NCBI RefSeq assembly: GCF_020923435.1
Contig: NZ_CP087263.1
Coordinates: 2,623,970-2,687,969, forward strand
Length of the DNA stretch: 64,000 nt
Direction of reading: 5' to 3'
Source of the DNA: Brevibacillus humidisoli
GTDB taxonomy: Bacteria > Bacillota > Bacilli > Brevibacillales > Brevibacillaceae
The notes below the pieces were generated by a model, which saw nothing but the letters and a program-made list of their open reading frames with translations, was not told the DNA's origin and did not search any database. Of this stretch, positions 23,136 to 29,888 are shown piece by piece; within the stretch, counting starts at the first letter, position 1; every line of letters starts with the position of its first letter. Made by a program: the position numbers and the translations under genes.

Positions 23136-24305
<1,170 letters not shown>

Positions 24306-24324
24306 TTACATATAAGCCATTCCT

Positions 24325-24353
24325 ATTATAGAGGCATTGGACAAGAATCACAA
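24325..24353 (-). promoter_or_regulatory. Promoter for tgt-yajC
   Basis: Minus strand TTGTGA (24348-24353), 17-base spacer, TATAAT (24325-24330). Having its own promoter fits the loss of the usual queA linkage. Confidence 0.65.
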
Positions 24354-24371
24354 GCTAGAGCAAAAAAAGTA

Positions 24372-24400
24372 CTGGCAATCTCTCGCAAACCGACTATAAT
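24372..24400 (+). promoter_or_regulatory. Candidate promoter for the small SH3-like gene
   Basis: CTGGCA (24372-24377), 17-base spacer, TATAAT (24395-24400). Divergent from the tgt promoter about 20 bases away. The -35 is weak. Confidence 0.45.
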
Positions 24401-24486
24401 GTAAAATAACCTTAAAATTTTTATTAAGTTTTTGTAAAGCTCATGGACATTGCCCAAATCATATGGTAAAGGAAGGTGTTGGTCAA

Positions 24487-24645
24487 ATGTTTTCGTACGG
24501 TCAAAGAATTGCGGTGCGATCAAAGCAAAAGGGTACAGAGTATGTGTATCCACACTTGGGAATGGTACTGAAGGAGACCGACACGGATCTCGTCCTGCTG
24601 TTCCCTGATGGTCGCGTTACGGTGAAAAAAACGGATCTCGCCTGA
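24487..24645 (+). CDS. Small conserved-looking protein, SH3/KOW-like, function unknown
   Basis: 52 residues from the ATG at 24487, which has AAGGAAGGTG about 9 bases upstream; an ATG at 24463 is in frame but lies before that site. The sequence alternates hydrophobic and polar residues in short strands (GQRIAVRSK, HLGMVLKET, LVLLFPDGRVTVKKTDL), as in small beta-barrels. It has its own candidate promoter and a strong terminator, so it looks like a monocistronic gene. No function assigned. Confidence 0.65.
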   Translation: MFSYGQRIAVRSKQKGTEYVYPHLGMVLKETDTDLVLLFPDGRVTVKKTDLA

Positions 24646-24659
24646 GGATCATCTTTCTC

Positions 24660-24735
24660 AATCACGTTGGCCAGTGCAAAACAGCCCGATGGTACGCGGA
24701 CTGCGGTACATCGGGGGTGTGCAGAGCGCGTGATG
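24660..24735 (+). other. Structured 3' region of the small-gene transcript
   Basis: CCCGATG-GTAC and GTACATCGGG form a near-perfect hairpin, enclosed by ATCACG (24661-24666) and CGTGAT (24729-24734). The arrangement suggests a folded RNA between the stop codon and the terminator. Not matched to a known family. Confidence 0.4.
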
Positions 24736-24741
24736 TGCAAA

Positions 24742-24773
24742 AGTGCCGCCCGTTGGGGGCGGTACTTTTTTTG
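24742..24773 (+). terminator. Rho-independent terminator, possibly bidirectional
   Basis: AGTGCCGCC pairs with GGCGGTACT, followed by a run of seven T on the plus strand. The minus strand has TTTTGC, so it may also stop leftward transcripts from the racemase operon. A second perfect stem (CTGCCGTTG/CAACGGCAG, 24786-24811) lacks a T-run. Confidence 0.85.
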
Positions 24774-24813
24774 CTTCTGAACGGCTGCCGTTGTCTATCG
24801 GCAACGGCAGTCG

Positions 24814-25506
24814 CTACTTTTGAAGTGCCAAGCGCACCGTCTTTTTTGCCAAAAGCAAGGTCGGATCAATGAATGTAAACTCTTTTTCGAAAGGTGGAAA
24901 AAGGAGAGGAATTTCTGTACAACCACCCAAAACGTTTGTGATTTGGTATCCCGCTATCATCTCACGCACGCTTTCTATTGTCGAAAGGGTTGGCCTATGC
25001 TTGGTTTTGACTTCGTGTATGATCTGATTGACGAGAGTTTGTTGATCGATATCGGGAATAATCAGTTGTACAGAGGTTTTCTCAAACGCTCTTTGATATA
25101 GTCCACTGCGAATGGTGGTCTCTGTCGCGAGAAGAAGAATCTGCTCACTCCTCCCTTTGGTCTGTGTGATGATATGTTCAACCGTACATTCAATGATGCT
25201 GTAGATCGGAATCGATATGGAAGCGCTGATCTCATCCAGCCAATAATGTGCTGAATGACACGGGATGACAATAAAATCAGCTCCTGCTTGTTCCAGCGTG
25301 ATTGCCGTTCGGATCATCTCCGGTACAGGACTCTCATGGCCTGGTTTTAAAGCATCGATTCTCGACGGTATCTTGGGATTGTTATAGATCAACATACGCA
25401 AGTGATCGTGTTCTTGTTGGACCGGGGTGTTCTCAATTATTTTTTTCACCATATCCAAGGTTGCCATTGGTCCCATCCCGCCCAATACCCCTATCACTTT
25501 GCTCAT
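24814..25506 (-). CDS. Aspartate/glutamate racemase family protein
   Basis: 230 residues from the ATG at 25506 (GGAGGTG site). N-terminal GVLGGMGPMATLDM and the two catalytic cysteines are present: IPCHSAHYW near residue 86 and LGGCTEIPLL near residue 190. Such enzymes interconvert L and D amino acids without a cofactor, usually Asp or Glu. It lies 13 bases downstream of the Mur-ligase/ATP-grasp fusion, so the two are cotranscribed. The likely role (inference) is to supply a D-amino acid to that ligase. Visibly more A+T rich than tgt or queA. Confidence 0.88.
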   Translation of the reverse strand: MSKVIGVLGGMGPMATLDMVKKIIENTPVQQEHDHLRMLIYNNPKIPSRIDALKPGHESPVPEMIRTAITLEQAGADFIVIPCHSAHYWLDEISASISIPIYSIIECTVEHIITQTKGRSEQILLLATETTIRSGLYQRAFEKTSVQLIIPDIDQQTLVNQIIHEVKTKHRPTLSTIESVREMIAGYQITNVLGGCTEIPLLFPPFEKEFTFIDPTLLLAKKTVRLALQK

Positions 25507-25519
25507 TTGTTCACCTCCA

Positions 25520-27931
25520 CTAGGAATAAAACCCTGCAAGGTGCTTGGCATACTGAAAAGGGGTGTGAAGAATAGAAGGCAACACCTCACGCTCATCTTC
25601 TGTTCGGTCCTGCTTGATTTCGGCCGCATAGTTTAGCTGAACCTCTAATATGTGGATATTCAGACTATGGTCGATCACAAAATCGATGGCAGCGTCTCCT
25701 AAAAGCCCTCCTTGCCTTTCCATCTTTTCTAATATGGTTGCTCCTAACTGGGTAACTTGTTTTATCTTCTGCTTTATCTGCACATCGGTTAATCCGTACA
25801 ATTCCCTCAGCGTCACTTTTCCTGGCACAATTTTTGACCTGTTTTTGGAGTTTGAAATAATGCTTCCCCGCTTGCCTATCTTCGTTTCCAGACCTGAAAA
25901 ATTCCAGCGGCCTGCTCCGTCCTTCTGAATATAGATGCGGAAGTCCACTTTCCCGATTTGAAAATCTGATGGAATTCCTTGCTGCACAATATAAGGTTTG
26001 CTGCTGATTCCATATTTCTTGATCAACGACAACAATTGCGGCTTGGATTCAATGTTCCATGTTTCACCGTTTCCGTTGATCCATACCTTTCTGTTGTTGC
26101 TGATGGAACGAATCGCCACAATTCCTTTGCCCCCGGCCATTGTTGTCGGTTTTAAATAAATGAACTTGTATTTGTTTAGCATGCGGAGCAGACTTGGTAT
26201 CCCCGTATACCGGGTTGTTGCAGGCAAATGCTTCCTGATCAGCGGATCTTTGGAGAATCGGGACCAAAACAGCCATTTGTTCGTATTTTTGTAGGGATAA
26301 TTAAACAGCTTGTTTCCGATTCGTCTTCTATAGCGCTGGTACGTCTCCCGCTTTAACGAGACTCGGCTAAAAATGGACGATGGAAGGGGAAATATTCCAT
26401 TTACAAACGTTTTCCGGATAGGATCATAATATTTGCCTCTCACTGTTTTATCTTGTCCAAGTCTCTGATTTGGTTTTAAGAGAAAGATCAGCCCTCTTGT
26501 CCGGTTGTAATCGGAAAACCGCAACAACTGCTTTTGGGGATCATCATAATAGCTGGACAATACAAAAAAACCAATCACTGGTCCTACGTGCAAGTGGTTC
26601 CTTTTTAGATAATAATCATAGGGAAGGTCAGGAATGGTGATGGTACGAGTCAGGCGCCGGGGGATCCGCAGCACGCCCGGAGCAACCTGGTCATTTTTCC
26701 TCGTTCGCAATACTTTGGAGTAATTGCCAAAATGTAATCGAATGCGGGAAGACAAGATTTTCAGGCGGTTCAGGGTAAGAGGATGGACGTGTACTTCATG
26801 GCTGTCCTGGTGTTGATCGAATTGAATACTACAGGTGAATCGAGTTCTAATGAAAGTTGAGGTGATATCCATTTTCATTGATCTTGATCCTTTTACCAAA
26901 ATGACGCTATTGGCAAGATTCTCTCTCTGTAACGCAGCGTGCATCCGTTGCCGATTGGTAAAATAGTGGACCTGGTGAGCAGCAAGCCCTGCTTTAAGCG
27001 CTCCTTGCCTTACCCATTCGGTTTCTTTTCCAAGCGTGTAAATGGCGTCTACTCCATTCTGTGCCATATATCTGCCGATCTCTAGATGTGCTTCGTTTGT
27101 GTAGTCACCTAATTCCAACATGCTGCCGATGACAGCAACCTTCCTCTTGCTCTCCCCTATCCGAACCAAGACATCGACTGCCGATTTTACCGATTGCGGA
27201 TTGGCATTGACTGTGTCATCAATGAGCAAGGAACCTTCATTTAGGTTCGTCACGTTCAAACGTTTCACGGGGGGTGTGTATCGCGCCAATCCTCGCCTGA
27301 TGTCATGGACTGAAAAACGAAGCTGATGAGCAATGGCAATCGCAAATAATGCGTTATACACATTGTGATATCCATAGCTTGGGATAAAGAAGCTTTCGGC
27401 TGCTCCATCTATGGTCACAGAAAAACTCATACCCTCGTTCCTGTACTGGATCATACTGGCCCGATAATCGGCGCTTCTGTTGACTCCGATTGTAAGAATT
27501 TTCCCTGTATGAATGTCTGTTTCCAACCATTTTGAATTGTGGTCATCGTTATTGATGAGCAAAATGCCATTCTTGTTCATATACTGGATCAGAGCGGATT
27601 TATTTTTCGCCGTTGCACGAATGCTATTTCCTAAATTGCCGAAATGGGCGGTGCCTATATTCGTAATGACCGCAATATCTGGTTTGATAAATCGACAATG
27701 CCGGTGAGCTGCGCCAGGTTTTCCCATGCCCAATTCCAACAAGACAGCTTGATGGTTGGCACGCAACTTCTGCATTGTTTGTTTTGTATGCAGTGGCAGG
27801 TTTTTATTGCCTGAAGTCTTCAAAATGCGCCACTTTGTCTGCAAAATGGAGGCTAACATTTCTCTTGTTGTCGTTTTCCCTGAGCTTCCTGTGATAGTGA
27901 TCCGTGGTACGTTTGGGACCACAGTGTTCAT
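25520..27931 (-). CDS. Fusion of a MurF-like Mur ligase and a YheC/YheD-type ATP-grasp domain
   Basis: 803 residues from the ATG at 27931. Residues about 1-380 are a Mur ligase: P-loop TGSSGKTTTREML, IKPDIAVITNIGTAHFG, LLIDDTVNANPQSVKSAV, AVIGSMLELGDYTNEAHLEIG and LVKGSRSMKMD, closest to MurF. Residues about 400-800 match YheC/YheD, the spore-coat-associated ATP-grasp family: YDPIRKTFVNGIFPLPSSIF, FIYLKPTTMAGGKGI, KVDFRIYIQKD, and ILEVQLNY near the end. Both halves form amide-type bonds at ATP cost, so the protein is probably a two-step peptide or amide ligase acting on a small acceptor. The racemase follows in the same transcript. A normal MurF N-terminal UDP-substrate domain is not seen, so it is unlikely to be the housekeeping MurF. 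Product unknown. Confidence 0.85.
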   Translation of the reverse strand: MNTVVPNVPRITITGSSGKTTTREMLASILQTKWRILKTSGNKNLPLHTKQTMQKLRANHQAVLLELGMGKPGAAHRHCRFIKPDIAVITNIGTAHFGNLGNSIRATAKNKSALIQYMNKNGILLINNDDHNSKWLETDIHTGKILTIGVNRSADYRASMIQYRNEGMSFSVTIDGAAESFFIPSYGYHNVYNALFAIAIAHQLRFSVHDIRRGLARYTPPVKRLNVTNLNEGSLLIDDTVNANPQSVKSAVDVLVRIGESKRKVAVIGSMLELGDYTNEAHLEIGRYMAQNGVDAIYTLGKETEWVRQGALKAGLAAHQVHYFTNRQRMHAALQRENLANSVILVKGSRSMKMDITSTFIRTRFTCSIQFDQHQDSHEVHVHPLTLNRLKILSSRIRLHFGNYSKVLRTRKNDQVAPGVLRIPRRLTRTITIPDLPYDYYLKRNHLHVGPVIGFFVLSSYYDDPQKQLLRFSDYNRTRGLIFLLKPNQRLGQDKTVRGKYYDPIRKTFVNGIFPLPSSIFSRVSLKRETYQRYRRRIGNKLFNYPYKNTNKWLFWSRFSKDPLIRKHLPATTRYTGIPSLLRMLNKYKFIYLKPTTMAGGKGIVAIRSISNNRKVWINGNGETWNIESKPQLLSLIKKYGISSKPYIVQQGIPSDFQIGKVDFRIYIQKDGAGRWNFSGLETKIGKRGSIISNSKNRSKIVPGKVTLRELYGLTDVQIKQKIKQVTQLGATILEKMERQGGLLGDAAIDFVIDHSLNIHILEVQLNYAAEIKQDRTEDEREVLPSILHTPFQYAKHLAGFYS

Positions 27932-28193
27932 GCTTTCCCCCCCAGACCTCAATGGATAGGTTTCTCTAGTATCTTATTAACCCTCTCTTGCTTTTGTATG
28001 CGATATTTGTCCCCTGCCTCTACAATAAGGCTAAAAACATATTCCAACAGGAGGGGGTCTTGGCAGCACTGGACTACGTCTTGTTCAACAGTTCCGTGGC
28101 CCCTCTTGTTCTTGCCTAACAGGTATTCGCTCACCAGTCCCCGTTCGGGATTTACACCCGATAGATGTTCGGCGTTGCTTAGTGCCAAAAGAC
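27932..28193. other. Intergenic region upstream of the Mur-ligase fusion
   Basis: About 260 bases between the fusion gene and the M28 peptidase terminator. A minus-strand frame (27949-28227) is open across it, but it runs through the terminator and has no convincing ribosome site or recognised motif. The promoter for the fusion-racemase transcript should lie here, but no consensus pair stood out. Confidence 0.4.
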
Positions 28194-28221
28194 AAATGCC
28201 GCCCATGTGAGCGGCATTTTT
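28194..28221 (-). terminator. Rho-independent terminator of the M28 peptidase gene
   Basis: AATGCCGC pairs with GCGGCATT around an 8-base loop; T-rich on both sides (minus strand TTTGTCTTTT). Located 12 bases after the peptidase stop codon. Confidence 0.75.
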
Positions 28222-28233
28222 GTTCATTCCCTG

Positions 28234-29685
28234 CTAAGGTACCATCTCTACCTGTCTGTCGGGGAGCTCCCTCTCTTGCGCCTGATTGTCTTGCTCCCGA
28301 TTGTCTTGTGCCATGTCCTCAATCGCTCTGTCATCAAAGGGATAATCAACAGTCACCGGACTCCGGTACACCTTTTCAATCGCAGGCGTATCAGGTCGCG
28401 CGACTTCATAAACGGAGGCTCCTATGATTTGTGCCACCTGCTTTATCTTATCCCTGCTGATGTGCTCAATCGTGTCATTTGGCGAGTGATACCATGGCTC
28501 GCGCGGCGCATGGGTGAATAGGCCTGCCGGAATCCCTGCCAGGTGAAACGGCAGGTGGTCGCTGCCCGCTTCCTGACCGTAATGAAGCACATCAGAAAAA
28601 TGGGAACTGGCGACCGCGGCCATGTCTGTGATCAGGTTTTTCTGTCCGTCTGCCGTGTACATCATCAATTCGCCGGAATCTTTGCTGCCCACCATATCTA
28701 GTTGAAAAACCCCTACGATCCTCTCCCTCTCTGCATCCGTGAGTGACTCGACGTACGCAAAGGAACCCATCAAACTGCTTTCTTCTGCACCAAAGGTAAT
28801 AAAACGAAGTTCCGTATCGATCGGCACATCGGCCAAAACACGTGCCAATTCCAATGTAATCGCTATCCCTGAGGCGTCATCATTGGCACCTGGAGATCCT
28901 GCCACCGTATCATGGTGTGCACTGACAATCACAATCTGCCCTGTCCCCTCATCCGTATCCGGCTTTCTGACAGCGATCACGTTGTGCGACGTCCGCAGCG
29001 TCGTTAAGGCTCCTTCCACCACAAAAGAAGCGGTTGCCTTCTCCCCGGAAGCCAGTCTCTTCACCAATTGATTTCCTTGTTCCTGTCCGATCGTAATAGC
29101 GGGGATCAATCGCTCATCTGGCGCACTAAGTGTCGCGTGGAGGATTCCCGGGGTATTGTTGTAAACAATCACCCCCACCGCTCCCGCTTTTGCAGCATTG
29201 AGAATTTTGTCGGCAAAAGGAATCACTCCCCGAGCCACCAGCACAATCTTGCCGGACACATCTTTTCCCGCCAGATCACTTTCACTGCCGATTCCGCCAT
29301 CGACTAGCTCACCCGTCACCTCACCATTGACACCGAAGTGAAAAGAACCAAGAGACCAATCTACATCTTCAAATCCACTCACGGATAGAGACAGGGTAGT
29401 AGGCTCTTTATAGTGAGCGAAAGGAAACGACTGTGCCTGCGTCTCATAGCCATATGAAGCAAAACGGTTTTTCAGATAAGCTACTGCCTGATTCTCACCT
29501 GGACTTCCCGCTTCCCGGGGTGACTGGGATAGAAAGCGAATTGTTTCATACATGCGGTCAACCTCTAGGCGATCCACTATCTTGCTGTCAAAGGGAACCG
29601 ACGGCAGATCAGATGCAGCATTCCCAGGCGTTGCCGAAAAGATCAAAGCGATGGTCAAACAGACGAGCAAGATGTTGCGCGGCAT
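28234..29685 (-). CDS. Secreted M28-family zinc aminopeptidase with PA domain
   Basis: 483 residues. A signal peptide ends near GNAASD. A PA insert (about residues 120-215: GKIVLVARGVIPFADK, GAVGVIVYNN) precedes the catalytic domain. The five zinc ligands are in place: H in VSAHHDTV, D in GANDDASG, EE in FGAEESSLMGS, D in QLDMVGS and H in WYHSPNDT. Resembles B. subtilis YwaD, a secreted aminopeptidase. The tail after residue 455 is Glu/Asp/Gln-rich and probably disordered. Has its own terminator. Confidence 0.9.
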   Translation of the reverse strand: MPRNILLVCLTIALIFSATPGNAASDLPSVPFDSKIVDRLEVDRMYETIRFLSQSPREAGSPGENQAVAYLKNRFASYGYETQAQSFPFAHYKEPTTLSLSVSGFEDVDWSLGSFHFGVNGEVTGELVDGGIGSESDLAGKDVSGKIVLVARGVIPFADKILNAAKAGAVGVIVYNNTPGILHATLSAPDERLIPAITIGQEQGNQLVKRLASGEKATASFVVEGALTTLRTSHNVIAVRKPDTDEGTGQIVIVSAHHDTVAGSPGANDDASGIAITLELARVLADVPIDTELRFITFGAEESSLMGSFAYVESLTDAERERIVGVFQLDMVGSKDSGELMMYTADGQKNLITDMAAVASSHFSDVLHYGQEAGSDHLPFHLAGIPAGLFTHAPREPWYHSPNDTIEHISRDKIKQVAQIIGASVYEVARPDTPAIEKVYRSPVTVDYPFDDRAIEDMAQDNREQDNQAQERELPDRQVEMVP

Positions 29686-29888
29686 GAGTTTCCTCCCTTG
29701 TGCAAATAGTCTCCTCTCGATTGTACTTGGGCCGGTAGGGGGCTGCTATTTATGCAGCGTAAATGCAGTGTTACAAAACGTTAAGGAGGACACTACCTAC
29801 CTCATGCAATGTGCCGCACAAAACAAAACACCCCCTCCGAAAAGCCTGCACATGCGTACAGTACTCCTCCTGGAAGGGGGATGTGTCA

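What the first reader, a model, noticed from the sequence alone, without database searches (positions are those of the whole stretch)
25520..27931. Mur ligase fused to a YheC/YheD ATP-grasp domain: candidate new peptide or amide ligase
The sequence directly shows a complete MurF-like catalytic core (P-loop, DD-NANP and LVKGSRSMKMD motifs) followed by a full YheC/YheD domain in one 803-residue chain. Cyanophycin synthetase is the best-known case where an ATP-grasp and a Mur ligase share a chain, but with the opposite domain order and different ATP-grasp type. YheC/YheD are spore-coat-associated proteins without a known reaction. A fused pair suggests processive or two-step amide synthesis, perhaps on a spore or envelope component.
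Basis: partly seen in the sequence, partly recalled or inferred. Interest (0 to 1): 0.82.

Follow-up and report, generated by a model that had tools for sequence, protein, structure and literature searches.

The report
Fused two-site amide ligase with racemase
This gene joins two different amide-bond-building enzymes into one protein, and it travels with an enzyme that makes mirror-image amino acids, so spore-forming bacteria may use the set to build an unusual peptide, perhaps for their spore surface.

Summary
Window 25520-27931 (-) is one open frame of 803 aa: a MurF-type core without the N-terminal UDP-binding domain, then a YheCD ATP-grasp domain. Nine further genomes carry the same architecture, one as a frame-broken copy. 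(1) In all 10 genomes an Asp/Glu-type two-cysteine racemase gene is adjacent. (2) Three other genomes have an unfused YheCD-racemase-Mur operon, with a full-length Mur. (3) A second fusion in the opposite order, YheCD-Mur, occurs in 9 genomes; the Mur tree rejects a single clade. (4) In 7 of those 9 a CotZ-like gene lies directly upstream; none was found near the window type. All 56 of 398 class genomes with a close Mur match also have SpoIVA. Four relatives lack the cassette between queA and tgt. Best reading: a two-site ATP-dependent amide ligase with its own racemase, making a D-amino-acid-containing non-ribosomal peptide or polymer, perhaps for the spore envelope. Substrates and product are unknown.

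The parts
25520..27931 (-). fused Mur ligase - YheCD ATP-grasp protein, 803 aa
   Evidence: same architecture in 9 further genomes, one frame-broken
27329..27895 (-). Mur_ligase_M (residues 13-201): ATP-binding central domain; no Mur N-domain before it
   Evidence: Pfam PF08245, 135 bits; G15, K19, E66, H96, K111, H189, N193 invariant in the 9 type A, 9 type B and 25 short-Mur rows aligned
26882..27262 (-). Mur_ligase_C (residues 224-350)
   Evidence: Pfam PF02875, 63 bits; R224, D238, D239, K347 kept in all 9 type A rows
26312..26776 (-). linker plus N-terminal part of the YheCD region (residues 386-540)
   Evidence: inside the 368-802 match of the YHE profile built; modelled with the ATP-grasp half
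25538..26311 (-). ATPgrasp_YheCD domain (residues 541-798)
   Evidence: Pfam PF14398, 167 bits; K594, Q650, R665, D750, E763 kept in all 9 type A rows
24814..25506 (-). amino acid racemase of the Asp/Glu superfamily, 230 aa, starting 13 bp after the fusion stop, with GGAGGTGA before its ATG
   Evidence: two conserved cysteines C83 and C196
28234..29685 (-). M28 peptidase with PA domain, in the same extra stretch upstream of the fusion; probably not part of the system
   Evidence: Pfam; no tblastn match in the stretches held for the other type A fusions
24267..29888 (-). 5.6-kb stretch between tgt and queA that is absent from four relatives, two of the same genus, where queA and tgt are 103-481 bp apart
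   Evidence: G+C of 44.8% at 26-28 kb against about 52% on either side

Best explanation
The protein is a bifunctional ATP-dependent amide ligase, and the adjacent racemase supplies a D-amino acid (perhaps acidic: Asp, Glu or cysteate type) to it. Both halves would activate a carboxylate as an acyl phosphate with ATP and join it to an amino group. The Mur half lacks the domain that holds UDP-MurNAc-peptides in MurF, so it should act on a free or differently anchored peptide. Working in one chain, the two sites would add different residues and make a D-amino-acid-containing non-ribosomal peptide or short polymer, possibly laid down in the spore coat or crust. Shown by sequence: conserved catalytic residues, conserved linkage of the racemase, two fusions of the same pair in opposite orders, occurrence of close Mur matches only in SpoIVA-bearing genomes of the sample, coat-type genes next to the sister fusion. 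Inferred: catalysis, substrates, order of addition, product and spore location.
For: Catalytic residues invariant in 9 of 9 intact type A rows. Racemase adjacent in 10 of 10 type A genomes (8 upstream, 2 downstream), with both conserved cysteines in the 12 linked racemases aligned (the frame-broken L092 copy was left out). Among 398 genomes of the class 9 have a racemase match at E <= 1e-38; the best 6 (E <= 1e-58) all sit beside Mur and/or YheCD genes, and for the weaker 3 (E >= 1e-42) the 14-19 kb fetched shows no Mur or YheCD hit in any frame. Unfused YheCD-racemase-Mur operons in G004, G071 and G087. Opposite-order fusion in 9 genomes; the Mur tree rejects types A and B as one clade, p-AU 5.8e-9. 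Of 7 loci with unfused short Murs that group with type A or type B, 3 (L032, L036, L084) have a YheCD gene next door. The YheCD half models as an amino-acid ligase: VIA-align Z 16.5 to TTLL11 and TTLL6, 16.4 LysX, 16.0 RimK and ArgX, 15.8 DdlB, rmsd 4.1-5.0 A over 261-283 residues. All 56 genomes with a Mur match at E <= 1e-75 have SpoIVA, against 267 of 398 overall. CotZ-like gene 26-173 bp upstream and co-directional in 7 of 9 type B loci (Pfam support varies). B. [quoted passage not shown]
Against: I found no activity reported for a YheCD protein and no solved YheCD structure (one non-credible hit at E 0.93). None of the 9 type B loci has a racemase hit in its 19-kb stretch, so the racemase is not needed by every Mur-YheCD pair. 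Conversely no CotZ-like hit lies in the window or in the stretches held for the other type A fusions, so the spore link of type A is indirect. The Mur of the unfused racemase operons is full length, with about 104 residues before the core, and the one put in the tree (L048) falls outside the short-Mur clade, so these operons are not simply the unfused state of type A. The window copy lies among housekeeping genes, and no sigma-E match and only 1 sigma-K-like match were found upstream of 10 type A operons (expected by chance in 1-9% of them). Not all YheCDs need be spore proteins: paenibacilli have one between gyrA and gyrB (PMC5627462, passage), and 15 of 258 YheCD-bearing genomes lack SpoIVA. 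Type A is rare (3 of 398 genomes). The Asn of the YheCD EXN motif is Gln in every type A protein, which could alter activity. Models rest on 8-sequence alignments; the full-length one has pTM 0.47, and Foldseek TM-scores for the YheCD half stay at or below 0.46 of the query.
Confidence: 0.52

Rival explanations
1. [quoted passage not shown]
For: The Mur half is nearest MurF (TIGR01143, 285 bits, cut-off 288.6); Ddl structures are among the best matches of the YheCD half; racemase plus ATP-grasp plus MurF is the same trio of activities as alanine racemase, Ddl and MurF. NCBIfam holds bifunctional MurF/alanine racemase and MurC/Ddl models (listed).
Against: No UDP-substrate domain for a MurF-like acceptor; TTLL, LysX and RimK match equally well (Z within about 1), so Ddl chemistry is not singled out.
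Confidence: 0.23
2. The YheCD half is a coat-targeting or scaffolding domain that self-assembles on the spore; only the Mur half is catalytic.
For: B. subtilis YheD forms rings and a shell on the spore and self-interacts strongly, function unknown (PMC7911427, passages).
Against: K594, Q650, R665, D750 and E763 are kept in 9 of 9 type A and 9 of 9 type B rows, which a pure scaffold would not need.
Confidence: 0.1
3. A MurF paralogue for cortex or vegetative peptidoglycan that acts on UDP-MurNAc-peptides.
For: MurF core similarity, with the C-terminal LVKGSRS motif kept.
Against: N-domain absent; below the MurF cut-off, while the same genome has a full-length MurF at 412.5 bits.
Confidence: 0.08

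Closest known systems
Cyanophycin synthetase CphA1
   Same: One chain with an ATP-grasp amide ligase and a Mur-type ligase, each with its own active site (roles of G and M domains: PMC9262961, passages).
   Different: Domain order reversed in the window protein; YheCD instead of the CphA ATP-grasp; cyanophycin model hit only 57 bits against a cut-off of 850, Mur half only; a racemase gene beside it.
MurF (UDP-MurNAc-tripeptide:D-Ala-D-Ala ligase)
   Same: Nearest family of the Mur half: 285 bits to TIGR01143; the ten best fold matches of the full-length model are MurF chains.
   Different: No N-domain; score below the MurF cut-off; separate full-length MurF in the genome.
YheC/YheD (PF14398) of Bacillus
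   Same: Same ATP-grasp domain, over the cut-off.
   Different: Fused to a Mur ligase; Gln instead of Asn in the EXN motif; racemase beside it.
PgsB/CapB poly-gamma-glutamate synthase
   Same: Mur ligase without UDP-binding domain (recalled); in a third clade of short Murs, 12 of 17 loci have a CapA-type gene beside the Mur.
   Different: Weak similarity (PgsB model 22.9 bits, cut-off 222.7); no CapA-type hit in the window or in the stretches held for the other type A fusions.
CuyB / aspartate racemase family
   Same: The racemase passes NCBIfam CuyB (217 bits, cut-off 190) and asp_race; 4 of 4 linked racemases scanned pass CuyB.
   Different: The 12 linked racemases aligned read PCH-T/S-AH-x-W (Asn for His in 1 of 12) where the three unlinked ones read ACNTAH-x-F; the substrate may differ.

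Membership tests
YheCD ATP-grasp (PF14398) | profile match over the curated cut-off | tested here: met
   166.9 bits, cut-off 26.8
YheCD ATP-grasp (PF14398) | conserved Lys, Arg and acidic Mg ligands of the ATP-grasp site | tested here: met
   K594, R665, D750, E763 kept; the Asn two residues after E763 is Gln in type A
MurF | score over the curated MurF cut-off | tested here: not met
   285.2 bits, cut-off 288.6
MurF | N-terminal UDP-substrate domain | tested here: not met
   protein starts at the P-loop; match begins at profile position 75 of 418
Mur ligase superfamily | Mur_ligase_M and Mur_ligase_C with P-loop, Glu, His, Lys and HN-x-x-N residues | tested here: met
Cyanophycin synthetase | NCBIfam cya_phycin_syn equivalog over cut-off | tested here: not met
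   57.4 bits, cut-off 850, Mur half only
Cyanophycin synthetase | Asp-Arg polymer synthesis | not testable with these tools
   needs enzyme assay
PgsB/CapB | poly_gGlu_PgsB equivalog over cut-off | tested here: not met
   22.9 bits, cut-off 222.7
Cofactor-independent Asp/Glu racemase (P0002) | two catalytic cysteines and family score | tested here: met
   C83 and C196; CuyB 217.2 over 190, asp_race 177 over 93.1
CuyB cysteate racemase | activity on cysteate | not testable with these tools
   score only; neighbours of the cysteate pathway were not searched for

The most novel reading that the evidence does not exclude
A new spore-surface polymer system: a racemase and a two-site Mur/YheCD synthetase make a D-amino-acid-containing poly-amide, in the manner of cyanophycin synthetase but from a different ATP-grasp family. 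This would give the spore-associated YheC/YheD family its first reaction. Two lineages of Bacilli fused the same pair independently and in opposite orders.
Probability: 0.28. Interest if true: 0.82.

Novelty: new variant of a known kind. Interest (0 to 1): 0.62.

Why it matters
The function of spore-associated YheD is unknown (PMC7911427, passages), and I found none reported for YheC. Two fusions to a Mur-type ligase in opposite orders, and operons with an amino acid racemase, turn 'unknown' into a testable claim: YheCD proteins are amide ligases that work with Mur-type ligases, in some lineages on a D-amino-acid-containing product. That would add a peptide material to bacterial (perhaps spore) surfaces and a new two-site ligase for biocatalysis.

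Tried and rejected
Frame error or gene joining: rejected, because the architecture recurs end to end in other genera. One copy (L092, Rossellomorea sp.) is split by frameshifts in both the racemase and the fusion; it was described and left as it is.

Sporulation promoters: a simple consensus scan upstream of 10 type A operons gave no sigma-E match and one sigma-K-like match, no more than chance. The spore link rests on distribution and on CotZ-like neighbours of the sister fusion, not on promoters.

CotZ identity: the profile was seeded by three of the nine genes that it then finds (59 loci and the window searched, hits in 8 of 9 type B loci and in L119 only). Pfam's CotZ model is over its cut-off (24 bits) for L082 (44.5), L119 (45.3) and L070 (29.8), under it for L071 (22.2), L046 (18.1), L074 (16), L073 (13.7) and L087 (12.3), and without a match for L072.

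The EXN-to-EXQ change as a mark of racemase linkage: all 13 distinct racemase-adjacent YheCDs have Gln, but so do 5 of 31 YheCD rows that are not racemase-adjacent (45 rows, one of them, L068, a duplicate of L088). It is a trend noticed after the fact, not a rule.

Literature: no paper describing this architecture was found in these searches: YheC+YheD+ATP-grasp, 0 papers; Mur ligase/ATP-grasp/YheC, 7 listed, none with YheC; YheCD/ATP-grasp, 10 of 479 listed, none of the ten with YheCD; yheC/yheD/spore coat/endospore, 25 of 450 listed; ATP-grasp+MurF+racemase+spore, 0 papers; YheCD or PF14398, 2 papers, passages seen; cysteate racemase, 1 listed; Mur ligase/PgsB terms, 8 listed. Passages of PMC2922099 mention Mur ligases in other operons, nothing on YheCD. 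Of PMC3533761 passages were seen. A 2009 survey of ATP-grasp amidoligases that I recall may touch on YheCD proteins; it is not held, so prior mention cannot be excluded.

YheCD tree: the AU test for one clade of types A and B did not finish and was not resumed; long branches make that tree weak, and type B is one clade there with support of only 68/8. Independence rests on the Mur tree (quick method, SH-aLRT support) and the reversed order.

Rows dropped before the Mur and YheCD trees: loci L068 (duplicate of L088), L092 (frameshifted), L096, L098, L099, L101, L102, L103 (remote), and domains under 230 residues or 60 bits. L113, L114 and L119 were fetched later and are not in the trees. Cyanophycin synthetase was not among the top 50 fold matches of the YheCD half, which excludes nothing; it stands at rank 16 for the full-length model.

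Confidence was lowered slightly (0.55 to 0.52, novel case 0.30 to 0.28), because no CotZ-like gene was found near type A and the unfused racemase operons have a full-length Mur.

Full report
What is there. The frame from ATG 27931 to stop 25520 on the minus strand codes for 803 aa. Pfam finds Mur_ligase_M at 13-201, Mur_ligase_C at 224-350 and ATPgrasp_YheCD at 541-798, each over its cut-off. The nearest curated model is MurF (285.2 bits, just under the cut-off of 288.6), but the match starts at profile position 75, because the N-terminal UDP-substrate domain is missing. The same genome has a separate full-length MurF (412.5 bits). Thirteen bases after the fusion stop, behind GGAGGTGA, begins a 230-aa Asp/Glu-superfamily racemase at 24814-25506; it passes the CuyB and asp_race models and has both conserved cysteines.

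Not an artefact. Searching 99 relatives and then 398 genomes of the class gave two other full-length homologues, G077 and G120. A scan of named genomes gave eight, of which L088 (Caldalkalibacillus mannanilyticus) is the contig of G120; the others are Lysinibacillus sp., Siminovitchia terrae, Paenibacillus daejeonensis, Rossellomorea sp., P. faecalis, Lysinibacillus odysseyi and Bacillus sp. RO3. With the window and G077 that makes 10 genomes of 'type A' (Mur then YheCD). Two pairs among them are close relatives (L089/L094, L092/L095), and L092 is broken by frameshifts. The scan used two short peptide patterns, so the number is a lower bound. Intact copies align end to end at 46-51% identity to the window protein.

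The racemase goes with it. In 10 of 10 type A genomes a racemase gene is adjacent: upstream in eight, downstream in the window and in G077. The racemase subfamily is rare: 9 of 398 class genomes have a match at E <= 1e-38. The six best (E <= 1e-58) are all next to Mur and/or YheCD genes; around the three weaker ones (E >= 1e-42) the 14-19 kb fetched shows no Mur or YheCD hit. In G004, G071 and G087 a YheCD, a racemase and a Mur gene overlap in one unfused operon, with two more YheCD genes, a second Mur gene and a phosphatidylglycerol-lysyltransferase-like gene close by. The Mur of these operons is full length, and the one in the tree (L048) lies outside the short-Mur clade, so they share the trio of functions but are not simply the unfused state of type A. 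The 12 linked racemases aligned share a PCH-T/S-AH-x-W motif (Asn for His in one) where the unlinked three have ACNTAH-x-F.

A second fusion in the other order. In nine genomes of two other families a 707-744 aa protein carries YheCD first and Mur second ('type B'). In the Mur tree (70 rows) types A and B are each one clade (SH-aLRT 96 and 99). Seven loci with unfused short Murs group with one or the other, one pair (L079, L084) at support 89 only; in three of the seven (L032, L036, L084) a YheCD gene is next door. Forcing A and B together lowers the log-likelihood by 136 (p-AU 5.8e-9). Two fusions of the same pair in opposite orders are good evidence that the two enzymes act together. All nine type B loci also hold an L-amino-acid-ligase-type ATP-grasp gene, and one (L075) or two (the other eight) full-length MurF-like genes, in the 19 kb fetched; no racemase hit is among them. 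A third clade of short Murs (17 rows, support 88), including one in the window's own genome, has a CapA-type gene beside it in 12 of 17 loci.

Catalysis. In all 9 intact type A rows the Mur residues G15, K19, E66, H96, K111, H189, N193, R224, D238, D239 and K347 and the ATP-grasp residues K594, Q650, R665, D750 and E763 are invariant. One difference stands out: the Asn of the Mg-binding EXN motif is Gln (Q765) in all type A proteins and in the racemase-adjacent YheCDs of the three unfused operons, 13 of 13; elsewhere it is Gln in 5 of 31 rows. The YheCD half gives a fair model from an 8-sequence alignment (pLDDT 80.9, pTM 0.73). Its best structural matches are tubulin glutamylases TTLL11/TTLL6, LysX, ArgX, RimK and D-Ala-D-Ala ligases, with Z 15.8-16.5, rmsd 4.1-5.0 A and 261-283 residues aligned, all tied; Foldseek ranks Ddl, glutathione synthetase and RimK on top, at TM-scores of at most 0.46 of the query. 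The full-length model has pTM 0.47, so how the halves face each other is not known.

Link to spores. Of 398 class genomes, 258 have YheCD and 267 have SpoIVA; 243 have both, 15 YheCD only, 24 SpoIVA only. All 56 genomes with a Mur match at E <= 1e-75 have SpoIVA; outside the window's own family it is 30 of 30, against 231 of 362. These counts ignore shared descent. In 7 of 9 type B loci a CotZ-like gene lies 26-173 bp upstream in the same direction; in L046 it is about 4 kb away and in L075 none was found. By Pfam's own CotZ model two of these eight (L070, L082) pass the cut-off, as does the gene in the unfused cluster L119; five are under it and L072 has no match. No CotZ-like hit lies in the window or in the stretches held for the other type A fusions. 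In B. [quoted passage not shown] YheD surrounds the spore and its function is unknown (PMC7911427, passages). Against a strict spore role, paenibacilli have a YheC/D gene between gyrA and gyrB (PMC5627462, passage). No sporulation promoter was recognised upstream of the type A operons.

Origin in the window. In four relatives, two of the same genus, queA and tgt are 103-481 bp apart; in the window 5.6 kb lies between them and holds the M28 peptidase, the fusion and the racemase. G+C dips to 44.8% there. With 3 type A carriers in 398 genomes, in two families, horizontal transfer is the likely origin. The M28 gene has no match in the stretches held for the other type A fusions.

How it most likely works. 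Inference: the racemase makes a D-amino acid; the two ligase sites each activate a carboxylate with ATP and join residues to a peptide that is not held on UDP-MurNAc; the product may go to the spore or cell surface. [quoted passage not shown] By the membership tests the window protein is neither a cyanophycin synthetase, nor MurF, nor PgsB; it is a Mur-superfamily ligase fused to a true YheCD domain.

Noticed in passing
L047:9115-11451 (own genome) and 11 further loci: A short Mur ligase without N-domain stands beside a CapA/PGA_cap-type gene in 12 of 17 loci of its clade (Pfam checked in L047): a possible separate poly-amino-acid system.
   Followed up: partly
L048, L113, L114: Clusters with three YheCD genes, a racemase, two full-length MurF-like genes and a phosphatidylglycerol-lysyltransferase-like gene; L048 also has a TupA-like ATP-grasp gene.
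   Followed up: partly
L046, L070-L075, L082, L087, L036, L119; partial in L090: An ATP-grasp gene with an L-amino acid ligase C-terminal domain (PF18603, checked in L046) lies in each type B cluster, in G009 and G276, and at the edge of one type A locus.
   Followed up: partly
L114:8608-11375: Three similar genes in a row between the two Mur/YheCD operons; the two scanned match DUF7852.
   Followed up: no
L092:7153-10407: In Rossellomorea sp. AcN35-11 both the racemase and the fusion are split by frameshifts: decay or sequencing error.
   Followed up: no
L089:6894-7205 and L094:6921-7229: A small gene of 102-103 aa without a Pfam match directly precedes the racemase in two Lysinibacillus loci.
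   Followed up: no
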